From an uncultured Mollicutes bacterium (lineage in GTDB: Bacteria; Bacillota_I; Bacilli_A; Acholeplasmatales; Anaeroplasmataceae): a stretch of DNA of 52,133 nucleotides. The stretch lies in contig CAMWKG010000010.1 in assembly GCA_947174785.1 (NCBI GenBank), positions 1 through 52,133 on the forward strand, in the 5' to 3' direction. Positions 41,879 to 52,133 of this stretch are shown here, one piece after another. The notes beneath the pieces are model-generated. The model had not been told where the DNA came from. It searched no databases and worked only from the letters and a program-made list of their open reading frames with translations. A program made the position numbers and the translations under genes. Each line of letters starts with the position of its first letter. Within the stretch, counting starts at the first letter, position 1.

Positions 41879-44800
41879 TTACAATGATAGTGATATAGAT
41901 TGTATTGTATACTGTAAAGCTAGAATATCTAGTTTCTCACACACAATTTTAGAATCAGTAAGAAGTTTAAACGAAGTATATACTTGTTTTGTAGATACTG
42001 GATAATTGATATTATATCTTCCTGGAATTAAAGTACTTGCCTGATATGTATAAAGTACGTCGTTAATATTTTCAGTTTGAGAGGTTGTCGTAAACCACTG
42101 ATATGCCTTTACTCCAGAACCCTTATCCTCACCTAATGTTTGAGATATGATATATTGGTAGACATCTGAATTAGAAATGGCCTCTAAGACAATTTCTTTA
42201 TTTGTCATCAATAAAATTTCTCCTATATCTAAAACAAGATGATCAAAGGAACCATTATCAGGGTTTAGAAGCTCAATACCTCTAATAATATTCAATATTT
42301 CAGGCTTGCTTAATATACCTACAGAATCATTATCACAATGCTTGCTAGTATCTAAATTTGTACTATTTACATCTATACTAACCGTATCTTGATTTAAAAC
42401 CTTTTGAGAAATCGTCGTTCTAATAATTTCACTATTTACTAACGCTTGTTTTTCTGCCTCAGTAGTAGGTACAGCAATTTCATCAAAGCTTAAATTTGTA
42501 GGATCATCCATACCAATTCCTATAGTTAATGCTAGTAATAGGTTAGACAATTCCTCCTGCTCAATATATTTTTCTATTGAGCTTTGATATTGATAAGTAT
42601 ATGGAACCTTCAATTCATCTATGATGCAAACAGATGAGGTATCCACCATAATCTTACTTGATAATGTAGAAGATACAATTATAGATGCAGTCATTACATC
42701 TGCTTCTGTCTTAGTTCTTGGTAATGTCAAATGGCTAAGCTCAAAATTGCTTGCATTAATAGAATCCTCTGTTGTTGCAAAAAGTGCATTAAAGAAGGCC
42801 TTGAATTCCTGCTTATCGATTTGATTCTTTGTTTCATTTTTCAAAGTATCTACTGGTTGGATTACTATATTTGGAATCACAAGATCTTGAATTGTCACAA
42901 ATTTCTCTGATAATGTTAATTGAAGAATTTGAGATTCTAAGATGGTATCTGTCTTTGAAGAGGTAAGCTCAATATTTTCCAAATTAGAATTTAAATTTGA
43001 CATTTCAAGCTGGTCTGTATCAAACAATACAAACATAGCAGATAACACACTTTGTAGCTCTGTTGTTGCAATCAAATTCTCGATTTGATTTTGAATAGAC
43101 ATTTCTTCTGTTGTAATGCTTCTTGGAATGGATAATTCATCCATACCTCCTAGTTTATGAGAAATGGTTGCCGTAATAATATTAGAATCTAACAATACTG
43201 CTAAATCCTTTTTAGTTATAGTTAAAGAAGCAAATTCCTCACCGATAGTATCAACAACAATAGAGTCATCCCCTAAGATAATAAACATTAAATTTAGTAA
43301 TTTGGTCAATTCTTCTGTATCAATATTATTAATCATCATTCCATTAATTATTTGTTCTTTTGTTGCATATTTATCCAAAATTACAATTTGATTATTCTCA
43401 GATAATTTTGATGATACAGTTGCATTTAAAATACTAGATTGAGTTATATAAGGTATAGATTCTTTTTTAATCATCAAGCTTGTAAGCTGATGATCCAAAT
43501 CATTAACCATGATTACATCTGATTCTAATAGCTTAAACATTGCTTCAAATAGATTAGTTAATTCATCCTTATTCACAATATGTCCTGATTCTTTATTAAC
43601 AAAATCTGATGCTTTCGCACAAGATAGCGGAACATAAATCTGATGTAATTTAGACATTTTATTAGTTATCGTAGCACGAAGGATGGAAGAATTTAAAATG
43701 ATTGGAGTTGCATCTGCCCTAAAGGTTAAATCAAATAGGTCATCATCTAATTCTTTAACAACAATTTCACTTCGATTAAATAGTTTAAATACAGCTTTAA
43801 ATAAATCATTAAGAGCCTGCTGCTCAACAAGATTATTATTATAAAGCTCAGTAGGAACATGGAAAATTTGAGTTATTTTATTGCTTAAGGAAGCATTTAA
43901 AATTGCTGAAGCACAGATATCATCTATTCCGTTTTCTCTTAATTTTAAATCATCTTGCAACGTTTCAAAATTAAACTCAGCTGGAATTTTTCCATTTTCA
44001 TCCTTATCAATAAAGGTTTCAACAGCCTTTAACATTAAATAGATTTCATCATCTAATGTGTCATCTGAATCACCAAGCCACTTATTTCCTGTTAAATCTA
44101 AGTCTGTCTTAAATTTCTCAAAATCTATTTGATATGGCTCTGGAATAACTAAAAAGCCTTCTTCATTCTTGTCTAGCATTAATTGAATTAATGTGGCTGT
44201 AATAGTTTTACTCTTGCTTAATTCAGCCTTATTTTCAAATATCGCATTATAATTAATTTTCATTTCTTTTGACTCATCAAAGAAAACAATTTGTTGAATG
44301 TCAACAAAAATATCGCGAAGCTCTGTAGCCTGGATAACATTTACACATTTTTCTGTAGTAGTTGGTGCATTTACTTCCTCTAAAGAAGCTCTTGCAACAA
44401 CAATTTGAAAGCCATCTAAATCAGTGACCATATCACTTATTGTGTATCTTAAAACCTTAGAAGAACAAATTTGATTCAATGTTTCTTTATCTAGATTCAG
44501 AAGATCAGAAGGTTGGATGTTACCATTTAGTAATTCATTTATTAAATACTTTTCTTCTTCTACTTTCACTTCAGCAATACTATGTATAGCTTCAATTAGA
44601 ACACAAATTTCTCCATCGCCACTCTCACTAATCCATCTTTCAGGATCATCATAGGTCATAGGTAAAATAATCTGTTCTTGTGAAGAAGAAACTCCAATAA
44701 TAACATTGGCAAGTGTTCCTTGTAACAATAAAGATTCTTTGAGCTTCAAATCAATATAATCATTTGAGAAGATATGAGCATAATCAATATTATCTGGATG

Positions 44801-47014
44801 ATCCATAACTTCTACAATTAAATCTTTACAGTTAGAAAGCAAATCAGCAATGATTTCAATTTCACTATGCTTAATGATTTTACAGCCTTCTTTTATTTCT
44901 ATTATATCTTCTGGTAAATAGAGCTTAAAACCACCATTACCAAAATCAGCATAAGTTAAATAGGTAGATAAAATGTAATATACTAATTTAGAATTGATTA
45001 TATTTTTAATCAGTGTTGTCTCTGTCCCATCCACTGTAATTGTCTTAGTCAAAACCTCTAGCATTTCCTTAATCTGTTCTGACTGAACACTACCCTCACC
45101 ATTTTTCGTCATAGCAATGAGCAAAGGTCCTCCGCCATTTTTAAGGAGAAGCTTTACTGTGGAAAGTAATATACTACACTCTCCATCCTTACCAACATAA
45201 TCAATGTCCTTAGGAATCCTAACATTTTCATCTTTTGCAATATCAACAACGATTTTATCAATTTCTTTTCCTACAATTGAAGATTTAAACACAACATCTA
45301 ATAACAAAGATGATTCTAGTTGTTCAGTTAGTTCATCAAATGCTGTTTCCATATCCTTTGCATTTTCTCTTTCGAAAATATATGCAAGATTTTCAATCAT
45401 CTTATCATTATCCTTGTCATATACCTCATAAGCAATAGAAAGTAAAGGATCACATGCATTTAACAAAATATTAAATTCCTTTATCCAATCGATATCGTCA
45501 GGGACTTCAAATTCTATTTCTTCTTCAATTAAAGAAGTTGATGCATATGTATATAAACCTTTTATAATCTTATTTCCAATAGTAGCTCTTGAATCAAATA
45601 AGGATAATTTTTGAATGGTAGGAATAAAATTCTTAGCTATTAGAATCATTTGCTTATTAGAAACAAGCTTTGATTCTTCTTCACTTGTATTCAATTGTGG
45701 TTTTTCATTTTGGGCAGCATTTACTTCTGCAACAACCTGAACTAATCCTTTGAATAAATTCTTCATATCAGCTTCAGTTGCTAAATCTGTCACCTTTATT
45801 CCATCTTCACTTTTAAATAATTGATTTACAAGACCAACGATTCTTTCATCAGAAACAACAATATCAATATGATTTACTAATGAAGTTAAGGAGGATAAGC
45901 ATAAATTTGACATAAAGGTTTTACCGTCAAATTCATCAATCAATTTAGAAAATTCTTCTGCAAATCCCTCATTGCCCATAGTAGATATTAAAATCTGCAT
46001 CTGCCTGTCATTATCTACACCTGCAACTAAATCCTCTATATCCTTTGTTTCTCCATATTTTAACATCAAAGCAAAGGTGCTATTGATAAAATGAACGTAT
46101 TCTCCTATTTCATCTCTTAAATAAAACTTTTCATTTTCTACACCAAGATTTTCATCATTAAGTCTACCTTGCAAAACAATATCAGCAAAATAAAAGTAAA
46201 ATGGTGTGTGACTTGTGTCCTTTATAGAATTCAGTATCTGGAAAATACCTGTATTTCCCATGGCACACACATAGCTATAATAATCATATGCTTCATTCCA
46301 TGTTTTATCCTGAAACTCAACAGTCTGTTCATCTTTTAACTGGTCTCTTTGAGGTAGGTTTGTTCCACCTGTTACAATATAGATTAAGCTTCCCAAAAAA
46401 GAAAAACAAATGATTGCAGTAAATGTAGATCTCACCCCACCAATTAAACTTCCCAAAAGTCTTCTTCGCTTATATGGATGATTTACCTCACCATTTTGAT
46501 ACTTTCTTGTTTCTTTTCTAATCTTCCTTCTTACAGGGTACGCAATTAAATAAATAATATATAAGAAGAATAATAAGAAACCATATAAAATATAGCATAG
46601 GATTGCAATGACAAGATGGTAAGCCATATCTACTAAAGTATTGATATAAGCTGCATTTTCCACTATCAAATAATATGGTATAGATTGCTTATCACTTATC
46701 TCTTCTGCAATCTTCTGTAAAAGCATTTCATGCAAGGTTAGAAAGTCCTTATTTACTGATAGGATACTTTGTAGGCTTGTTCCAAATTTTCCTAATATTC
46801 CATTTATAAATTTAACCATATTCGCATCTAGATTAGGATTATTTACAATGCATAAATATACAATTAAACAAATTACACCAGCTGCCAACATGTGAATAAA
46901 CAATATCAAACTCTTTCTAAATCCACGAATACAACCAACTAAAATCCCACATAAAACTGTGAAGATAAATAGAAAGGTTGGTCCCCATGTAATAAAGAAT
47001 TTTATCATGTCCAT
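41879..47014 (-). CDS. Giant membrane protein: CvpA-like domain plus about 12 repeats
   Basis: The 1711-residue protein has about four membrane helices at roughly residues 9-33, 37-57, 128-160 and 192-215. The motif RRRLLGSLIGGVRSTF before the last helix and GILVGCIRGFRKSL after the first resemble CvpA-type proteins. The rest, about 1490 residues, is predicted to lie outside the cell. From about residue 660 to 1640 it is built of degenerate repeats of about 85 residues, each with a helix like ELTNLFEAMFKLL, then SSILNATVSSKL and a strand ending in IP. Earlier, weaker copies reach back to about 480. No anchor, signal peptide or enzyme motif was seen. GAGGAGGTG precedes the ATG. Confidence 0.85.
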   Translation of the reverse strand: MDMIKFFITWGPTFLFIFTVLCGILVGCIRGFRKSLILFIHMLAAGVICLIVYLCIVNNPNLDANMVKFINGILGKFGTSLQSILSVNKDFLTLHEMLLQKIAEEISDKQSIPYYLIVENAAYINTLVDMAYHLVIAILCYILYGFLLFFLYIIYLIAYPVRRKIRKETRKYQNGEVNHPYKRRRLLGSLIGGVRSTFTAIICFSFLGSLIYIVTGGTNLPQRDQLKDEQTVEFQDKTWNEAYDYYSYVCAMGNTGIFQILNSIKDTSHTPFYFYFADIVLQGRLNDENLGVENEKFYLRDEIGEYVHFINSTFALMLKYGETKDIEDLVAGVDNDRQMQILISTMGNEGFAEEFSKLIDEFDGKTFMSNLCLSSLTSLVNHIDIVVSDERIVGLVNQLFKSEDGIKVTDLATEADMKNLFKGLVQVVAEVNAAQNEKPQLNTSEEESKLVSNKQMILIAKNFIPTIQKLSLFDSRATIGNKIIKGLYTYASTSLIEEEIEFEVPDDIDWIKEFNILLNACDPLLSIAYEVYDKDNDKMIENLAYIFERENAKDMETAFDELTEQLESSLLLDVVFKSSIVGKEIDKIVVDIAKDENVRIPKDIDYVGKDGECSILLSTVKLLLKNGGGPLLIAMTKNGEGSVQSEQIKEMLEVLTKTITVDGTETTLIKNIINSKLVYYILSTYLTYADFGNGGFKLYLPEDIIEIKEGCKIIKHSEIEIIADLLSNCKDLIVEVMDHPDNIDYAHIFSNDYIDLKLKESLLLQGTLANVIIGVSSSQEQIILPMTYDDPERWISESGDGEICVLIEAIHSIAEVKVEEEKYLINELLNGNIQPSDLLNLDKETLNQICSSKVLRYTISDMVTDLDGFQIVVARASLEEVNAPTTTEKCVNVIQATELRDIFVDIQQIVFFDESKEMKINYNAIFENKAELSKSKTITATLIQLMLDKNEEGFLVIPEPYQIDFEKFKTDLDLTGNKWLGDSDDTLDDEIYLMLKAVETFIDKDENGKIPAEFNFETLQDDLKLRENGIDDICASAILNASLSNKITQIFHVPTELYNNNLVEQQALNDLFKAVFKLFNRSEIVVKELDDDLFDLTFRADATPIILNSSILRATITNKMSKLHQIYVPLSCAKASDFVNKESGHIVNKDELTNLFEAMFKLLESDVIMVNDLDHQLTSLMIKKESIPYITQSSILNATVSSKLSENNQIVILDKYATKEQIINGMMINNIDTEELTKLLNLMFIILGDDSIVVDTIGEEFASLTITKKDLAVLLDSNIITATISHKLGGMDELSIPRSITTEEMSIQNQIENLIATTELQSVLSAMFVLFDTDQLEMSNLNSNLENIELTSSKTDTILESQILQLTLSEKFVTIQDLVIPNIVIQPVDTLKNETKNQIDKQEFKAFFNALFATTEDSINASNFELSHLTLPRTKTEADVMTASIIVSSTLSSKIMVDTSSVCIIDELKVPYTYQYQSSIEKYIEQEELSNLLLALTIGIGMDDPTNLSFDEIAVPTTEAEKQALVNSEIIRTTISQKVLNQDTVSIDVNSTNLDTSKHCDNDSVGILSKPEILNIIRGIELLNPDNGSFDHLVLDIGEILLMTNKEIVLEAISNSDVYQYIISQTLGEDKGSGVKAYQWFTTTSQTENINDVLYTYQASTLIPGRYNINYPVSTKQVYTSFKLLTDSKIVCEKLDILALQYTIQSISLSL
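42100..45110 (-). repeat. Protein-level repeat region in the giant membrane protein
   Basis: Twelve copies of the pattern S-x-I/V-x-x-x-T/S-I/L-S-x-K are spaced by about 235-295 bases, centred near 42160, 42415, 42670, 42925, 43170, 43415, 43665, 43900, 44195, 44455, 44715 and 44980. Examples are NSSILRATITNKM, QSSILNATVSSKL, DSNIITATISHKL, ESQILQLTLSEKF and NSEIIRTTISQKV. Two more likely copies lie near 45285 (KSSIVGKEIDKI) and 45575. At the DNA level the copies have diverged, so this is an old duplication array rather than an active tandem repeat. Confidence 0.8.
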
Positions 47015-47168: not shown

Positions 47169-47243
47169 AGGGGTATGGTGTCAATGGTAGCACGCGGGTC
47201 TCCAAAACCTTTAGTGTGGGTTCGAATCCTACTACCCCTGCCA
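47169..47243 (+). tRNA. tRNA-Trp (anticodon CCA)
   Basis: The 75-base gene folds as a tRNA: acceptor stem AGGGGTA with TACCCCT (47233-47239), discriminator G, encoded CCA end (47241-47243), T-arm with GGTTCGAATCC and anticodon loop CTCCAAA, giving CCA for Trp. The sequence closely follows Bacillus tRNA-Trp. The outermost anticodon-stem pair (27-43) is a C-T mismatch and the next a G-U pair, which is a little unusual. A promoter and a terminator flank it, so it is transcribed alone. Confidence 0.95.
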
Positions 47244-47319: not shown

Positions 47320-48660
47320 TTATTTCGTCAACCAATATCCAGTTTTATTAGAACCTATTCGTTCTACTAAATCCTTTTCCTTTAATGATTTAATAGTTCT
47401 TTCAATCGTTCTTAAAGTTAAAGAACATTGCTTTGCAATATCTTCCATAGTAAAATTTTTATTTGTTTGAATTGCTGCAAGGACCTTTTGTTCAGTTTTG
47501 TTCAATTTTATCCCGACATTTATCCCGACATTTATCCCGACATTTAATTCATGTGCGACCAAGTTTCTACTATTAATAACTTCTTTATCAAAAGGCAAAA
47601 CCACATTAATATAATTTTCTTCTATATCAAAAGCATCTTTTCCATAGATCTTAATCACATCTGGTATACCATGACCTGTTTGTTCAACATAATCCAAGTC
47701 AGATAAGATTCTCATCAAAGATTTGTTTCTAGGTGTGCTTACTCCTTTAAAAAACATTTCTTTTGTTTGACCTTGTGGAAGTCCACCATGAGAAATAATT
47801 TCTATTCTATCACTAAAAATATAAACTGCTGGCTCAACCTTTGTCCAATCGTTATGAGCAATAGCATTGATAAAAATTTCTCTCAAAGCATCTTGATTAA
47901 GCAATCTCTTATCTACTCTCTGAGCTCCTTGAATTACAGACATAGTATAATTTTCTGCTTCTAAACGATTAATCATCCTATCTATAGCAACCAATAAGCA
48001 TTGATATCCATATTCGCTTTTTTCTACCAGTTCAGATTTATCTATACCTCTAAATCTAGCTATTTTAATAGAAATTCTATTCTCATCAGATAGTAATTCG
48101 GCTAATAAATTATACTTACCATTTCTTGTTTTCAAATCAAGATTATCTTCAAATGTGTCATCAGAAAGATGAAATTTCTTTTCACCATAATATATTTTTA
48201 ATTGCTTAAAACTTAACTTAGTGCGGTTGCTTTCAATCTGTGTTATATCATTGTTAGATAAATAAATTGAACCAAATTTATTTTCAATTTGCTGTTCAGT
48301 CATACTTCTACAGCTTGTACCAACTCTAATATAACACCCCTTAGAACTTCTGCCATACTTTTTAATATAATATAACGAATCGCCCTTAGATACCTTTACT
48401 TCAATAATCATCTTACCAGCTTCATACTTAGCAGAAACTTCTATGAGTTCTTGAGGGTTTGGCAATATTCCATTAGAGATAATGTCTGCAATATTCTTCA
48501 TCACTTCATCTAATTTATTTACACCTACAACCATTCCATCATCTTCGACCCCAATATAAATAACACCATTATGGGTATTAAGAAAAGCTACTACTTCCTT
48601 TTCAAATGTTTCATTAAGATTTCTTTTTAATTCAATGCTTTCTGTTTCTTGAAAAATCAT
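47320..48660 (-). CDS. AlbA_2 / HATPase_c_4 / winged-helix transcriptional regulator
   Basis: The 446-residue protein has an AlbA_2 (Schlafen-like) DNA-binding domain (residues 1 to about 115; ESIELKRNLNETFEKEVVAFLNTHNG, YIGVEDDG), a GHKL-type ATP-binding domain (about 255-345; LREIFINAIAHNDW, DRIEIISHGGLPQG, TGHGIPDV) and a C-terminal winged helix (about 388-446; TMEDIAKQCSLTLRTIERTIKSL). A linker with NVGI repeats (about 372-384) joins the last two. Such proteins are common in mobile and defence-rich regions and are thought to be stress-responsive regulators; the target is unknown. It has its own promoter, which overlaps the end of the next gene. Confidence 0.88.
   Translation of the reverse strand: MIFQETESIELKRNLNETFEKEVVAFLNTHNGVIYIGVEDDGMVVGVNKLDEVMKNIADIISNGILPNPQELIEVSAKYEAGKMIIEVKVSKGDSLYYIKKYGRSSKGCYIRVGTSCRSMTEQQIENKFGSIYLSNNDITQIESNRTKLSFKQLKIYYGEKKFHLSDDTFEDNLDLKTRNGKYNLLAELLSDENRISIKIARFRGIDKSELVEKSEYGYQCLLVAIDRMINRLEAENYTMSVIQGAQRVDKRLLNQDALREIFINAIAHNDWTKVEPAVYIFSDRIEIISHGGLPQGQTKEMFFKGVSTPRNKSLMRILSDLDYVEQTGHGIPDVIKIYGKDAFDIEENYINVVLPFDKEVINSRNLVAHELNVGINVGINVGIKLNKTEQKVLAAIQTNKNFTMEDIAKQCSLTLRTIERTIKSLKEKDLVERIGSNKTGYWLTK
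47508..47543 (-). repeat. In-frame 12-bp tandem repeat in the AlbA_2 regulator
   Basis: Three perfect copies of TTATCCCGACAT stand in a row, with a partial fourth, inside the coding region. They encode NVGI repeats between the ATP-binding domain and the winged helix. Because the unit is 12 bp, gain or loss of copies keeps the frame and would only change linker length. Confidence 0.95.
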
Positions 48661-48682: not shown

Positions 48683-48719
48683 CTATATATAGTATATCAT
48701 TTTTTAGTATTGATAGCAA
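48683..48719 (-). promoter_or_regulatory. Promoter and palindrome upstream of the AlbA_2 regulator
   Basis: TTGCTA (48714-48719), 17-base spacer, TATACT (48691-48696) on the minus strand, with the perfect palindrome CTATATATAG (48683-48692) overlapping the end of the -10 box. The palindrome stands where an autoregulatory operator would be expected. The promoter overlaps the last 16 bases of the upstream gene. Confidence 0.65.
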
Positions 48720-48961
48720 AATGTATTTAATAAATTTTCTTCATTATCTCTTTTATACAAGATAACAAAGGTTTCATTAACTGGACTATCTCCATTTAGA
48801 GAGAATTTAGCCATATGTCTTTGAATTATCTTTTCACTTCTCCAGACTTCTCTATTGTTTTCTTTGACTTGATGTTGAGATTGGACGTCTTGTTCTTCTA
48901 CTTGAATTTTTAAAAAGTTTCCTTTGCCTCCAAACTCATACTTCATTGTTATTTTTGACAT
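48704..48961 (-). CDS. Small hypothetical protein (85 residues)
   Basis: Not recognised. The protein is hydrophilic and looks like a small beta-rich soluble domain: KITMKYEFGGKGNFLKIQVE, a polar Gln/Glu-rich middle (QDVQSQHQVKENNREVW) and MAKFSLNGDSPVNETFVILYK. AAGGAGG lies 7 bases before the ATG, good support for real translation. It ends only 43 bases before the AlbA_2 regulator and could be read into it, although that gene has its own promoter. Confidence 0.65.
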   Translation of the reverse strand: MSKITMKYEFGGKGNFLKIQVEEQDVQSQHQVKENNREVWRSEKIIQRHMAKFSLNGDSPVNETFVILYKRDNEENLLNTFCYQY

Positions 48962-49062
48962 AGCTTGTCCTCCTTAGGGTTTTATATTTCTTCACCCTTC
49001 TGGACAACTTCCTATATAAACGCAAGTATAAAAGATAAAAAAATTCTAAAAAAATAAAAAAA

Positions 49063-49084
49063 ACTTGGGTTTAAATGCCCAAGT
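49063..49084 (-). terminator. Strong terminator before the 85-residue gene
   Basis: A stem ACTTGGG(C) / (A)CCCAAGT on the minus strand, with a loop of about 6 bases, is followed by TTTTTTTTATTTTTTT. It lies about 260 bases after the TIR gene stop, and may serve a separate short transcript. Confidence 0.8.
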
Positions 49085-49189
49085 AAGGTAAAATTATTTA
49101 ATTTTTTATGTTTTACTCACTATTATTACTATCTCCGACATTGTATGGTATATTGTATAACAAAATGAAATACTATGGTGTTAGAAAAT

Positions 49190-49226
49190 AAAAAAAGCCG
49201 TTTACAGAGTTCAATCTGATAACGAC
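49190..49226 (-). terminator. Complex hairpin and U-tract after the TIR gene
   Basis: On the minus strand GTCGTT and AACGGC pair (one G-U), a 2x2 internal loop follows, then CAGA pairs with TCTG around a 6-base loop, and the stem runs into seven T. It is a workable terminator for the TIR gene 120 bases upstream. The preceding sequence also looks like the 3' part of a tracrRNA; see findings. Confidence 0.65.
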
Positions 49227-49346: not shown

Positions 49347-50888
49347 TCAAATATTTATATTCTTACATTTTATAATAAAATATTTTTTGAGATTATTATG
49401 TTCTTCAACCTGTATTTTTGATTTATTTAATCTAATTAGAGGAACTATACCACCATTTGTATAAATAACCAAATCTTCACGTATCTCATTAAATTTGTTA
49501 CCACAAATAAATTTTGAATCAATAATATTATCACCATCTGCTTTATCTTTTAAAATCCATTCATAATTACTATCATAAGAATACACTCCCTGACATAGTG
49601 CATAATCAGTAGCATTAATTCTGTTTCTTTTTTCGGACATCAAATGTTTTTCTACATCATCTGCACTAACTAATGATACTCCAAATTCTTTATCAAGAAG
49701 TTCCCTTTCTTCCGTATTAAAAGCACAATCAAAAAATGTAGTATTTAACCAGGTTTGAATGAAAGATCCTTCAAACACATTTGCAACTCTGGAATTGATT
49801 AATTCATCGTATGTCATATTAGAAAATGGCTGAGAATCTATAATATCCTTTGTGCATAAATATATATAACTTCTATCTTCATATAATTTTCTCCATACTA
49901 ATGGTTCATATAAAAAATAGTAATTTGTGTTAATACTAAACTTATTTTTAAATTGATAACTATTAGGCAAGCCAGATACTAAGCAAGGTCTAAATCGAGT
50001 AAATTTCACAGCACGTATCTGCTTATTCTTTAAATCAATATATTTCATATAGTCTTCAATTTTACCATTATAGCTATATTCATAGGAAGTCCATTTATCA
50101 AATTCTGGAACCTCTACATTCAAATCTTTAATTTCATCATCTAATAGTTTATTTTGGGGATAGTGCCCGAATAAATAAAAATCTTCATCTACTAGTATTG
50201 GTTCAACCGAAGCTAAAACACGTTCAAAAAAAGAAACTTCATCTCCTTGTCTAACATTAAAATCGTTAATATTATTACCTTTTGTTATGAATTCTACCAT
50301 TTCCTGTTTTTGAGATTCAGAATAGTTGTTACTTAATAATTGCTTTATCCTATCATTATCATAATTATTTAGCTCAATATAATCATTTCGCAACTTCAGC
50401 TCTAATTCATTTTTATTTTCAATTATCTTAATTACTTCTTCAGATAAGTACTGCTCATTAATGAAATCTCTAAAATTATAACCATTTACATTTATTATAA
50501 TAATTTTAGGCTTGCTTTCCCTCTCTAATAAATACTTTATTTCATGTGCTGTTACACAATTTTCATTTATTTCATTTTTATCATTTGTAAAATTAACAGT
50601 GAAATTTTTATCTAAAAAAATAATAAAATAATTAATAGAATCAATTAATTTTTTTAATGCTTCATAATCAGTATATCTTCCACAAGCAATATAATCTGAA
50701 TAATATACATTTCCAAAATATCTAGTGTCATATAAGGATACATTTATTTTTTGTATATAGTCATAAAAATTTCTAGCTAATATTGCTGTTGAATCTCTAT
50801 AACATAGAAATATATTATATTCTTTTGATAAATCAACTTTAAATTTATCTTTTATTTTTTTTTCTAACTCTTCATCTATGTTTTTCAA
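49347..50888 (-). CDS. TIR domain-DUF6273 fusion protein
   Basis: Residues about 20-145 follow a TIR domain: strand YNIFLCYRDS, helix, SLYDTRY, then INYFIIFLDKNF, and the Glu-containing helix CVTAHEIKYLLERE, where the catalytic Glu of NAD-cleaving TIR domains normally lies (about residue 117), followed by KPKIIIINV. Residues about 235-470 match DUF6273: FYLFGHYPQN, VWRKLYEDRSYIYLCTKDIIDSQPF, FIQTWLNTTFFDCAFNTEERELL and a region with ATDYALCQG. I use TTG at 50888, with GGGG 9 bases upstream; a TTG three codons earlier has none. TIR proteins in such regions often act in phage defence; that role is inferred. Confidence 0.8.
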   Translation of the reverse strand: MKNIDEELEKKIKDKFKVDLSKEYNIFLCYRDSTAILARNFYDYIQKINVSLYDTRYFGNVYYSDYIACGRYTDYEALKKLIDSINYFIIFLDKNFTVNFTNDKNEINENCVTAHEIKYLLERESKPKIIIINVNGYNFRDFINEQYLSEEVIKIIENKNELELKLRNDYIELNNYDNDRIKQLLSNNYSESQKQEMVEFITKGNNINDFNVRQGDEVSFFERVLASVEPILVDEDFYLFGHYPQNKLLDDEIKDLNVEVPEFDKWTSYEYSYNGKIEDYMKYIDLKNKQIRAVKFTRFRPCLVSGLPNSYQFKNKFSINTNYYFLYEPLVWRKLYEDRSYIYLCTKDIIDSQPFSNMTYDELINSRVANVFEGSFIQTWLNTTFFDCAFNTEERELLDKEFGVSLVSADDVEKHLMSEKRNRINATDYALCQGVYSYDSNYEWILKDKADGDNIIDSKFICGNKFNEIREDLVIYTNGGIVPLIRLNKSKIQVEEHNNLKKYFIIKCKNINI

Positions 50889-50987
50889 TTTTACCAACCC
50901 CTATTACAAAAACTCTTTTCTATATACTAATATTAACAATACTATTTTTTAATAGTATCATATTTTTCGTCAATAAATAACAAAATC

Positions 50988-51105: not shown

Positions 51106-51666
51106 TTATTCTGTTGGTGGATTCATTTGATTTTTCTTTTTTTGAACATTCTTTTTAGTTGTACGAAGTAACCAGTTAGTTTTTTCATTGTCAGTAGTAA
51201 TAAGTTTTAAACAATCTAATGAAGATGTTTTCTTTATTTTATCCATTATATTAGAGTTGCAAATATTGTGTAACATCTCAAGTGTATTCTTTGACAAAAC
51301 ACTGCAACTATCAATTTTCTCACTATTATGCACTATCAAGAACAAATCTAAATAAAACAAACTATTTTCTTCTGAATTATCATAAGACAAAATAAAACTC
51401 ATTGTTGGAGAAACTAAAAATTTTTTTATAAACTCAACTTCACTTTCTAGTGATAATCCATCTTGCAAATGCTTTATTCCTGATTTAATACAAATTGAAT
51501 TTAGATTCCCTTCTAGTAATAATAAATCTTTAATAACTTCATCCTTTATTTTATAATCAGTCGATGTGTCTTTTCTTGACCAAAAATAAAGTAAGAAGGA
51601 TATACTTGCAGAAAAAATGATACTTATCAAAGAGATAATTAATGTTGCAATTTCAGAACCAGTCAT
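51106..51666 (-). CDS. Single-pass membrane protein, unknown
   Basis: Not recognised. The 186-residue protein has one N-terminal membrane helix (about residues 6-29, ATLIISLISIIFSASISFLL) followed by RKD, so it is probably anchored with the rest in the cytoplasm. The soluble part is mostly helical, with four cysteines and a basic C-terminus (TKKNVQKKKNQMNPPTE). It has its own promoter. It lies between the TIR-DUF6273 gene and a DUF2971 gene, a setting where small membrane effectors are sometimes found, but no domain supports such a role. Confidence 0.7.
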   Translation of the reverse strand: MTGSEIATLIISLISIIFSASISFLLYFWSRKDTSTDYKIKDEVIKDLLLLEGNLNSICIKSGIKHLQDGLSLESEVEFIKKFLVSPTMSFILSYDNSEENSLFYLDLFLIVHNSEKIDSCSVLSKNTLEMLHNICNSNIMDKIKKTSSLDCLKLITTDNEKTNWLLRTTKKNVQKKKNQMNPPTE

Positions 51667-51924: not shown

Positions 51925-52133
51925 TTAATTTCTTTCTATCAACTTAATATCCATTTTCTTACAATATTCCATCATCTTAATCTTATTTTCTTTAGATACA
52001 TTTTTGCCTAAATAGATTGCTATTATTTTGGGTGCAATTGGTTTTTCTCCTGCATCTCCAATCAATCTCCATTCTCGCTGATATTTCCATTGTGTGTTTT
52101 TGGTTAGAAATAATCTTAAATATTGTGTTATAT
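51925..52133 (-). CDS. DUF2971 protein, C-terminal part (cut by window edge)
   Basis: The minus strand is open from the window edge to a TAA at 51925-51927, giving about 68 residues. The segment TQWKYQREWRLIGDAGEKP is the W-x-Y-x-x-E-W/Y-R hallmark of DUF2971 proteins, followed by PKIIAIYLGKNVSKENK. The family is of unknown function and is common in accessory regions. After the stop, a shifted frame continues with KLELKSERNIDIMLGKDI and ends at 51828, so the true C-terminus may be longer and disrupted by a frameshift. The 5' part lies outside the window. Confidence 0.7.
   Translation of the reverse strand, partial: ITQYLRLFLTKNTQWKYQREWRLIGDAGEKPIAPKIIAIYLGKNVSKENKIKMMEYCKKMDIKLIERN

What the first reader, a model, noticed from the sequence alone, without database searches (positions are those of the whole stretch)
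49347..50888. TIR domain joined to DUF6273: candidate defence or signalling protein
The N-terminal part has TIR strands and a conserved-position Glu; the C-terminal part matches DUF6273, a domain often found in extracellular or lectin-like contexts. No transmembrane part is seen, so the protein is probably cytoplasmic. TIR domains that cleave NAD or make cADPR isomers trigger cell death in several anti-phage systems; here DUF6273 may be the sensor. Neighbouring one-pass membrane and DUF2971 genes may be partners, but each has its own promoter.
Basis: partly seen in the sequence, partly recalled or inferred. Interest (0 to 1): 0.65.

Follow-up and report, generated by a model that had tools for sequence, protein, structure and literature searches.

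The report
Immune-type TIR enzyme with lectin-like sensor
A wall-less gut bacterium carries a gene that joins an immune-type TIR domain to a lectin-like domain otherwise seen mostly on cell surfaces, which looks like a one-protein infection alarm whose trigger and activity are still untested.

Summary
The minus-strand gene 49347-50888 (513 aa, TTG start) joins an N-terminal TIR-like domain (about residues 23-168) to a C-terminal DUF6273 domain (about 234-489). Neither passes its Pfam cut-off directly. TIR evidence: profile comparison with six other TIRs of this genome (87%), and a low-confidence model whose 12 best aligned structures are all TIRs. Glu116 falls on the catalytic glutamate of TIR-1/SARM1 and is kept in the four relatives aligned. 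DUF6273 evidence: E 1e-19 to secreted DUF6273 proteins of the same family. DUF6273 is a C-type-lectin fold and a known target of diversity-generating retroelements, but this genome has no reverse transcriptase hit.

New here: the nearest relative of this TIR heads a TIR-NACHT-LRR (NLR-like) protein in Anaeroplasma bactoclasticum. The window's genome has a TIR-NACHT-LRR gene too, and a NACHT-LRR-like gene cut by a contig end with a cytosolic DUF6273 gene 14 nt downstream. That locus shares a 429-bp, 96% identical flank with the window gene. Best reading: a mobile, single-protein immune effector in which DUF6273 replaces NACHT-LRR as sensor. No second TIR-DUF6273 protein was found. Trigger, NADase activity and phage defence are inferred.

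The parts
49347..50888 (-). TIR-DUF6273 gene, 513 aa, TTG start, TGA stop; GC 0.245
   Evidence: own-genome search finds no second full-length copy
50385..50822 (-). TIR-like domain, residues about 23-168
   Evidence: no Pfam TIR hit
50541..50543 (-). codon of Glu116, the position of the TIR catalytic glutamate
   Evidence: invariant in the 4 sequences of A2; profile A5 puts this column on the Glu of TIR-1 (8p2m)
49422..50189 (-). DUF6273 (C-type-lectin-like) domain, residues about 234-489
   Evidence: sub-threshold in Pfam
50898..50902 (-). AGGGG, likely ribosome-binding site 9 nt before the TTG
   Evidence: read directly
48769..49196 (.). 428 bp that recur at 96% identity (429-column alignment) in contig C39 of the same genome, just downstream of its DUF6273-DUF3800 genes
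   Evidence: blastn
48704..48961 (-). 85-aa ORF, truncated copy of the 120-aa ORF in C39 (92% identity over 71 aa)
   Evidence: no family in Pfam or PHROGs
51106..51666 (-). neighbour with one N-terminal membrane stretch, 186 aa; partnership not shown
51925..52131 (-). end of a DUF2971-like gene cut by the contig end (PADLOC candidate model PDC-S31, E 9e-11); partnership not shown

Best explanation
A cytosolic, mobile, single-protein immune effector. The C-terminal DUF6273 domain, a C-type-lectin fold taken over from the surface proteins of these bacteria, binds an infection-linked ligand. Binding lets the N-terminal TIR domains assemble, and the TIR then consumes NAD+ or makes an NAD-derived signal through Glu116, stopping the infected cell. 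DUF6273 stands where the closest relative has NACHT-LRR. Shown: both domains at sequence level, the Glu, no membrane stretch, kinship of the TIR with a TIR-NACHT-LRR protein, a second cytosolic DUF6273 gene beside a NACHT-LRR-like gene, and a shared flank of the two loci. Inferred: origin from surface proteins, sensing, assembly, NADase activity, role against phages.
For: TIR kinship and fold: (control 80). Closest TIR is the head of a 1388-aa TIR-NACHT-LRR protein. Own genome: a further TIR-NACHT-LRR gene next to a TIR gene and six TIR_2 hits, five over the cut-off. DUF6273 ORF 14 nt behind a 5'-cut ORF that matches the helical-LRR part of the TIR-NACHT-LRR protein, 32% over 702 columns. Shared 429-column flank, 96%; AT-rich stretch, GC about 0.24 against 0.32 for the window. 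DUF6273 as lectin-type binding domain: PMC10743442 and PMC11792537, passages. TIR effectors with C-lectin sensors in putative conflict systems: PMC10907252 and PMC7159879, passages.
Against: No Pfam TIR hit, and the own-genome TIR_2 search does not ring here. The position four before Glu116 is Val, not Trp. Structure confidence is low and Z below 8 can be a common arrangement. No second TIR-DUF6273 protein: 2 of 395 class genomes and 2 of 160 order genomes have the TIR, both times the own genome and the TIR-NACHT-LRR one, so conservation of Glu cannot be tested among orthologs. No PADLOC system matched (two candidate models at E 0.013 and 0.019 only). No experiment.
Confidence: 0.5

Rival explanations
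1. A TIR toxin for contest between bacteria or against a host: DUF6273 directs the protein to a target after release or injection.
For: DUF6273 is mostly found on exported proteins (28 of 36 complete-start ORFs have a hydrophobic stretch before the domain), and Anaeroplasma is host-associated (recalled).
Against: No signal peptide or membrane stretch, no secretion gene recognised among the near neighbours scanned and no immunity-like partner shown; the closest TIR sits in an NLR-like protein.
Confidence: 0.1
2. A scaffold or signalling adaptor: the TIR domain is catalytically dead and joins other TIR proteins of the genome (six further TIR hits) to a DUF6273 sensor.
For: Trp at -4 replaced by Val; several TIR and TIR-NACHT-LRR proteins in the same genome.
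Against: Glu116 is kept in all four aligned relatives.
Confidence: 0.25
3. A decaying relic of a mobile element: an accidental fusion without present function.
For: Single copy known, long branch of its DUF6273 domain (2.79 against a median of 0.91), truncated gene next door, very AT-rich.
Against: Intact 513-aa frame with ribosome-binding site and the catalytic-position Glu kept.
Confidence: 0.15

Closest known systems
TIR-NACHT-LRR protein of Anaeroplasma bactoclasticum (L034, JAMPGQ010000067.1)
   Same: closest TIR found, 30-31% identity, same NENC-x-TA-x-E motif
   Different: carries NACHT and BspA-type LRR instead of DUF6273
Bacterial NLRs and NLR-related bNACHT proteins (PMC12169576, passages)
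   Same: effector in front, recognition module behind; relatives in the same genus have NACHT and LRR
   Different: the window protein has no NACHT NTPase; TIR and sensor are joined directly
C-lectin sensors of conflict systems varied by diversity-generating retroelements (PMC10907252, PMC7159879, passages)
   Same: C-terminal C-type-lectin fold with TIR or other effector domains in front
   Different: no reverse transcriptase hit in this genome; DUF6273 rather than the FGE/FGS type
DUF6273 receptor-binding proteins of gut phages, 'tentaclins' (PMC10743442, passages)
   Same: DUF6273 domain, C-type-lectin fold
   Different: phage proteins with Ig domains, no TIR
Secreted DUF6273 proteins of the same bacterial family (L014 and others)
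   Same: same domain over its whole length, E 2e-25
   Different: signal peptides or lipobox and InlB-type repeats in front; exported

Membership tests
TIR domain | match to Pfam TIR models over the cut-off | tested here: not met
   no TIR family in Pfam scan at E 10; TIR_2 search of the genome silent here
TIR domain | profile kinship with accepted TIR domains | tested here: met
   A4 against A7, 87.4%, E 3.7e-6; control 0.1%. In a plain HMM search with A7 it reached only E 0.18, though first of 219 ORFs
TIR domain | TIR fold | tested here: inconclusive
   model pLDDT 44.7; VIA best Z 7.8 to SARM1 TIR, 126 residues, rmsd 4.1, first 12 rows all TIR; Foldseek none at E 0.001
TIR domain | catalytic glutamate | tested here: met
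   Glu116, invariant in A2, on the Glu column of TIR-1
TIR domain | Trp four residues before the glutamate (WxxxE; motif recalled) | tested here: not met
   Val112 here, Ile in the other three rows of A2
TIR domain | NAD+ cleavage | not testable with these tools
   needs an assay
DUF6273 (PF19789) | match over Pfam cut-off | tested here: not met
   13.3 bits, cut-off 23.5
DUF6273 (PF19789) | homology to accepted members over the whole domain | tested here: met
   L014 (95.9 bits for PF19789): E 2e-25, residues 240-488; L009 E 1.2e-19
DGR variable protein | reverse transcriptase in the genome | tested here: not met
   RVT_1: 0 of 1 genome (96.3% complete); the same search rings in 3 of 14 control genomes
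DGR variable protein | template and variable repeat | not tested
   no repeat search was run
Bacterial NLR / bNACHT | NACHT NTPase domain | tested here: not met
   no NACHT in the window protein; present, under the cut-off, in its TIR relatives
Known anti-phage system | match to a PADLOC model | tested here: inconclusive
   only PDC-M35B at E 0.013 and 0.019, residues 166-238

The most novel reading that the evidence does not exclude
Anaeroplasma keeps an NLR-like immune repertoire built by swapping the recognition modules of its own surface proteins (BspA-type LRR and DUF6273 C-lectin) behind TIR or TIR-NACHT effectors. In TIR-DUF6273 the lectin-like domain acts as an integrated decoy: a cytosolic copy of a surface or phage adhesin domain that is bound by the same phage protein or ligand and so sets off the TIR.
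Probability: 0.08. Interest if true: 0.85.

Novelty: new variant of a known kind. Interest (0 to 1): 0.5.

Why it matters
If right, it is a minimal immune receptor: a TIR effector joined straight to a C-type-lectin-like sensor, without NTPase and without a retroelement to vary it, in a genus whose relatives of the same TIR carry NACHT-LRR. It would show LRR and lectin-like modules of bacterial surface proteins being reused as interchangeable sensors of cytosolic TIR proteins, and offers a small protein in which DUF6273 ligand recognition can be tested.

Tried and rejected
Led nowhere: viral-contig scans with the full protein, the TIR alignments and the DUF6273 alignments (patterns matched, no relative confirmed). 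Genome-contig scan with the full protein found none; with A2 it found one locus, L034. Plasmid and phage records gave only DUF6273-level matches, 2 and 1 records, none covering 80% of the query. First structure job, full protein alone, was useless (pLDDT 34.7). PDB sequence search with the protein alone and with A4 gave no TIR; with A5, which includes two other TIRs of the genome, TIR-1 at E 0.0016. PDB search with the DUF6273 alignment A6 gave nothing relevant.

Rejected: retroelement-varied sensor; DUF2971 and the membrane gene as partners (no shared synteny shown; DUF2971 not searched in relatives); A4 against A5 as evidence (one search is circular, as A5 holds the window and L034); A3 bit scores of the window and C39 domains as independent evidence (both are rows of A3). 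The DUF6273 tree is the quick one; the careful search did not finish. It joins the window and C39 domains with weak support and warns of long branches, so no claim on kinship rests on it. The phylum search largely repeated the genomes of the class search.

Results against my reading: small DUF6273 ORFs without an export signal also exist elsewhere (L075, L077; L076 and the fragment L078 unclear), so a cytosolic DUF6273 domain is not unique to this genome.

Full report
What is there. The ORF 49347-50888 lies on the minus strand, 513 aa, TTG start with AGGGG 9 nt upstream. The window is the whole contig C10 (52133 bases) of a 1.84-Mb genome, 96.3% complete.

The N-terminal domain. Pfam finds no TIR and the TIR_2 model rings at six other places of the genome, five over the cut-off, but not here. 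The case for TIR rests on weaker signals: a relative in 2 of 395 class genomes, the own one included, and 2 of 160 order genomes, both times the own genome and G042; profile comparison of window plus this relative (A4) with six TIRs of the own genome (A7), 87.4%, E 3.7e-6, control 0.1%; and a two-row AlphaFold2 model of pLDDT 44.7 and pTM 0.43 for which the 12 best VIA rows are all TIR domains, best Z 7.8 to human SARM1 over residues 23-168. Foldseek gave no match at E 0.001, with TIRs at E 0.017 and 0.027 near the top among unrelated AAA proteins. Glu116 sits in the sequence NENCVTAHEIKYLLE and falls on the catalytic Glu of C. elegans TIR-1 in the A5 profile (that this Glu is the catalytic one is recalled); it is invariant in four rows. 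The residue four before is Val, not the usual Trp.

The C-terminal domain. The single-protein search of 55 family genomes gave matches in 12, all but the own gene from about residue 184 on, best E 1.2e-19 outside the own gene. One match, L014, scores 95.9 bits for PF19789 and aligns to the window over residues 240-488 at E 2e-25. With the profile A3, 45 of 395 class genomes have a match. Of 56 distinct domain ORFs in the loci fetched, 20 run off the 5' end of the locus; of the other 36, 28 have a clear hydrophobic stretch before the domain (15-residue mean of 1.9 or more). The other eight are L014 (a lipobox by eye), the window, the C39 ORF, a broken second half (L048), and L075, L076, L077 and L078. 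Of 219 ORFs in these loci, only the window's matches the TIR profiles A4 or A5 at E 0.001, which is expected because the window is a row of both; the point is that no other does. For the 20 ORFs that run off the locus, only the part held was tested. DUF6273 resembles a C-type lectin and is hypervaried by retroelements in gut phages (PMC10743442 and PMC11792537, passages).

Relatives in the genus. The TIR relative is the head of a 1388-aa protein with a NACHT domain (19.7 bits, under the cut-off of 26.7) and BspA-type LRR (188.8 bits). In the own genome, contig C20 holds a TIR gene (359 aa) and a 1302-aa TIR-NACHT-LRR gene (TIR_2 31.2 bits, NACHT 21.7 under the cut-off, LRR 336.9). Contig C39 begins inside a gene that matches the helical-LRR part of the 1388-aa protein (32% identity, 702 columns); its N-terminus, and so whether it has NACHT or TIR, is missing and was not found elsewhere in the genome. 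Fourteen nt behind it starts a 243-aa DUF6273 ORF (E 4e-17 to the window protein), then a DUF3800 gene.

Mobility. Window 48769-49196 recurs at 96% over 429 columns in C39 4196-4622, just downstream of the DUF3800 gene there as it is downstream of the TIR-DUF6273 gene here. It covers part of a small ORF, 120 aa in C39 and truncated to 85 aa here. The last 3 kb of the window have GC about 0.24, against 0.32 for the window; a tRNA-Trp gene lies at 47169-47243. This fits two cargo loci of one kind of mobile or recombining element, but no integrase or ends were sought.

Mechanism. TIR domains of defence proteins cleave NAD+ (established knowledge; PMC7159879 passage on TIR). C-lectin domains at the C-terminus of conflict proteins, with TIR or NACHT in front or nearby, are proposed antigen sensors (PMC10907252 and PMC7159879, passages). 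I therefore read the window protein as sensor plus effector in one chain. The steps of sensing, assembly and NAD+ loss are inference.

What is known. Bacterial NACHT-LRR proteins are described as bona fide bacterial NLRs (PMC12169576, passage). In the library searched, DUF6273 appears in 5 papers; I read its passages in two, and no title or abstract start of the five speaks of TIR. A search for TIR with C-type lectin, NADase and sensor domain gave one review (listing only). A search for BspA, leucine-rich repeat and NACHT together gave five papers, three listed, none on bacterial NLRs by title. Within these searches I saw no report of a TIR-DUF6273 protein.

Verdict. It is a new variant of a known kind: TIR effector with C-lectin-like sensor.

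Noticed in passing
L038:2260-6168 (own genome C20) and L034:412-4578: TIR-NACHT-BspA-LRR proteins of 1302 and 1388 aa: an NLR-like layout, with a separate 359-aa TIR gene before the first.
   Followed up: partly
L037:1-4149 (own genome C39): NACHT-LRR-like gene cut by the contig end, then a cytosolic DUF6273 gene and a DUF3800 gene, a possible three-gene system.
   Followed up: partly
own genome C3, about 1149-40706: An open frame listed as 16337 aa with many LRR matches, and another of 5792 aa, in a 1.84-Mb genome: a giant protein.
   Followed up: no
L039:5545-8682 (own genome C7 end): Two TIR genes in tandem; the second (592 aa or more, cut) also matches the IF-2B family (E 8e-9).
   Followed up: no
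L042 (Aristaeella lactis plasmid NZ_CP069422.1): A DUF6273 gene in a row with FHA, AAA ATPase, protein phosphatase and protein kinase genes.
   Followed up: no
window 47320-48660: AlbA_2 (Schlafen-type) gene with a RecG-like C-terminal ATPase part and winged helix, beside tRNA-Trp.
   Followed up: no
window 41879-47014: 1711-aa protein with hydrophobic N-terminal stretches (by eye) and no Pfam family over the cut-off.
   Followed up: no
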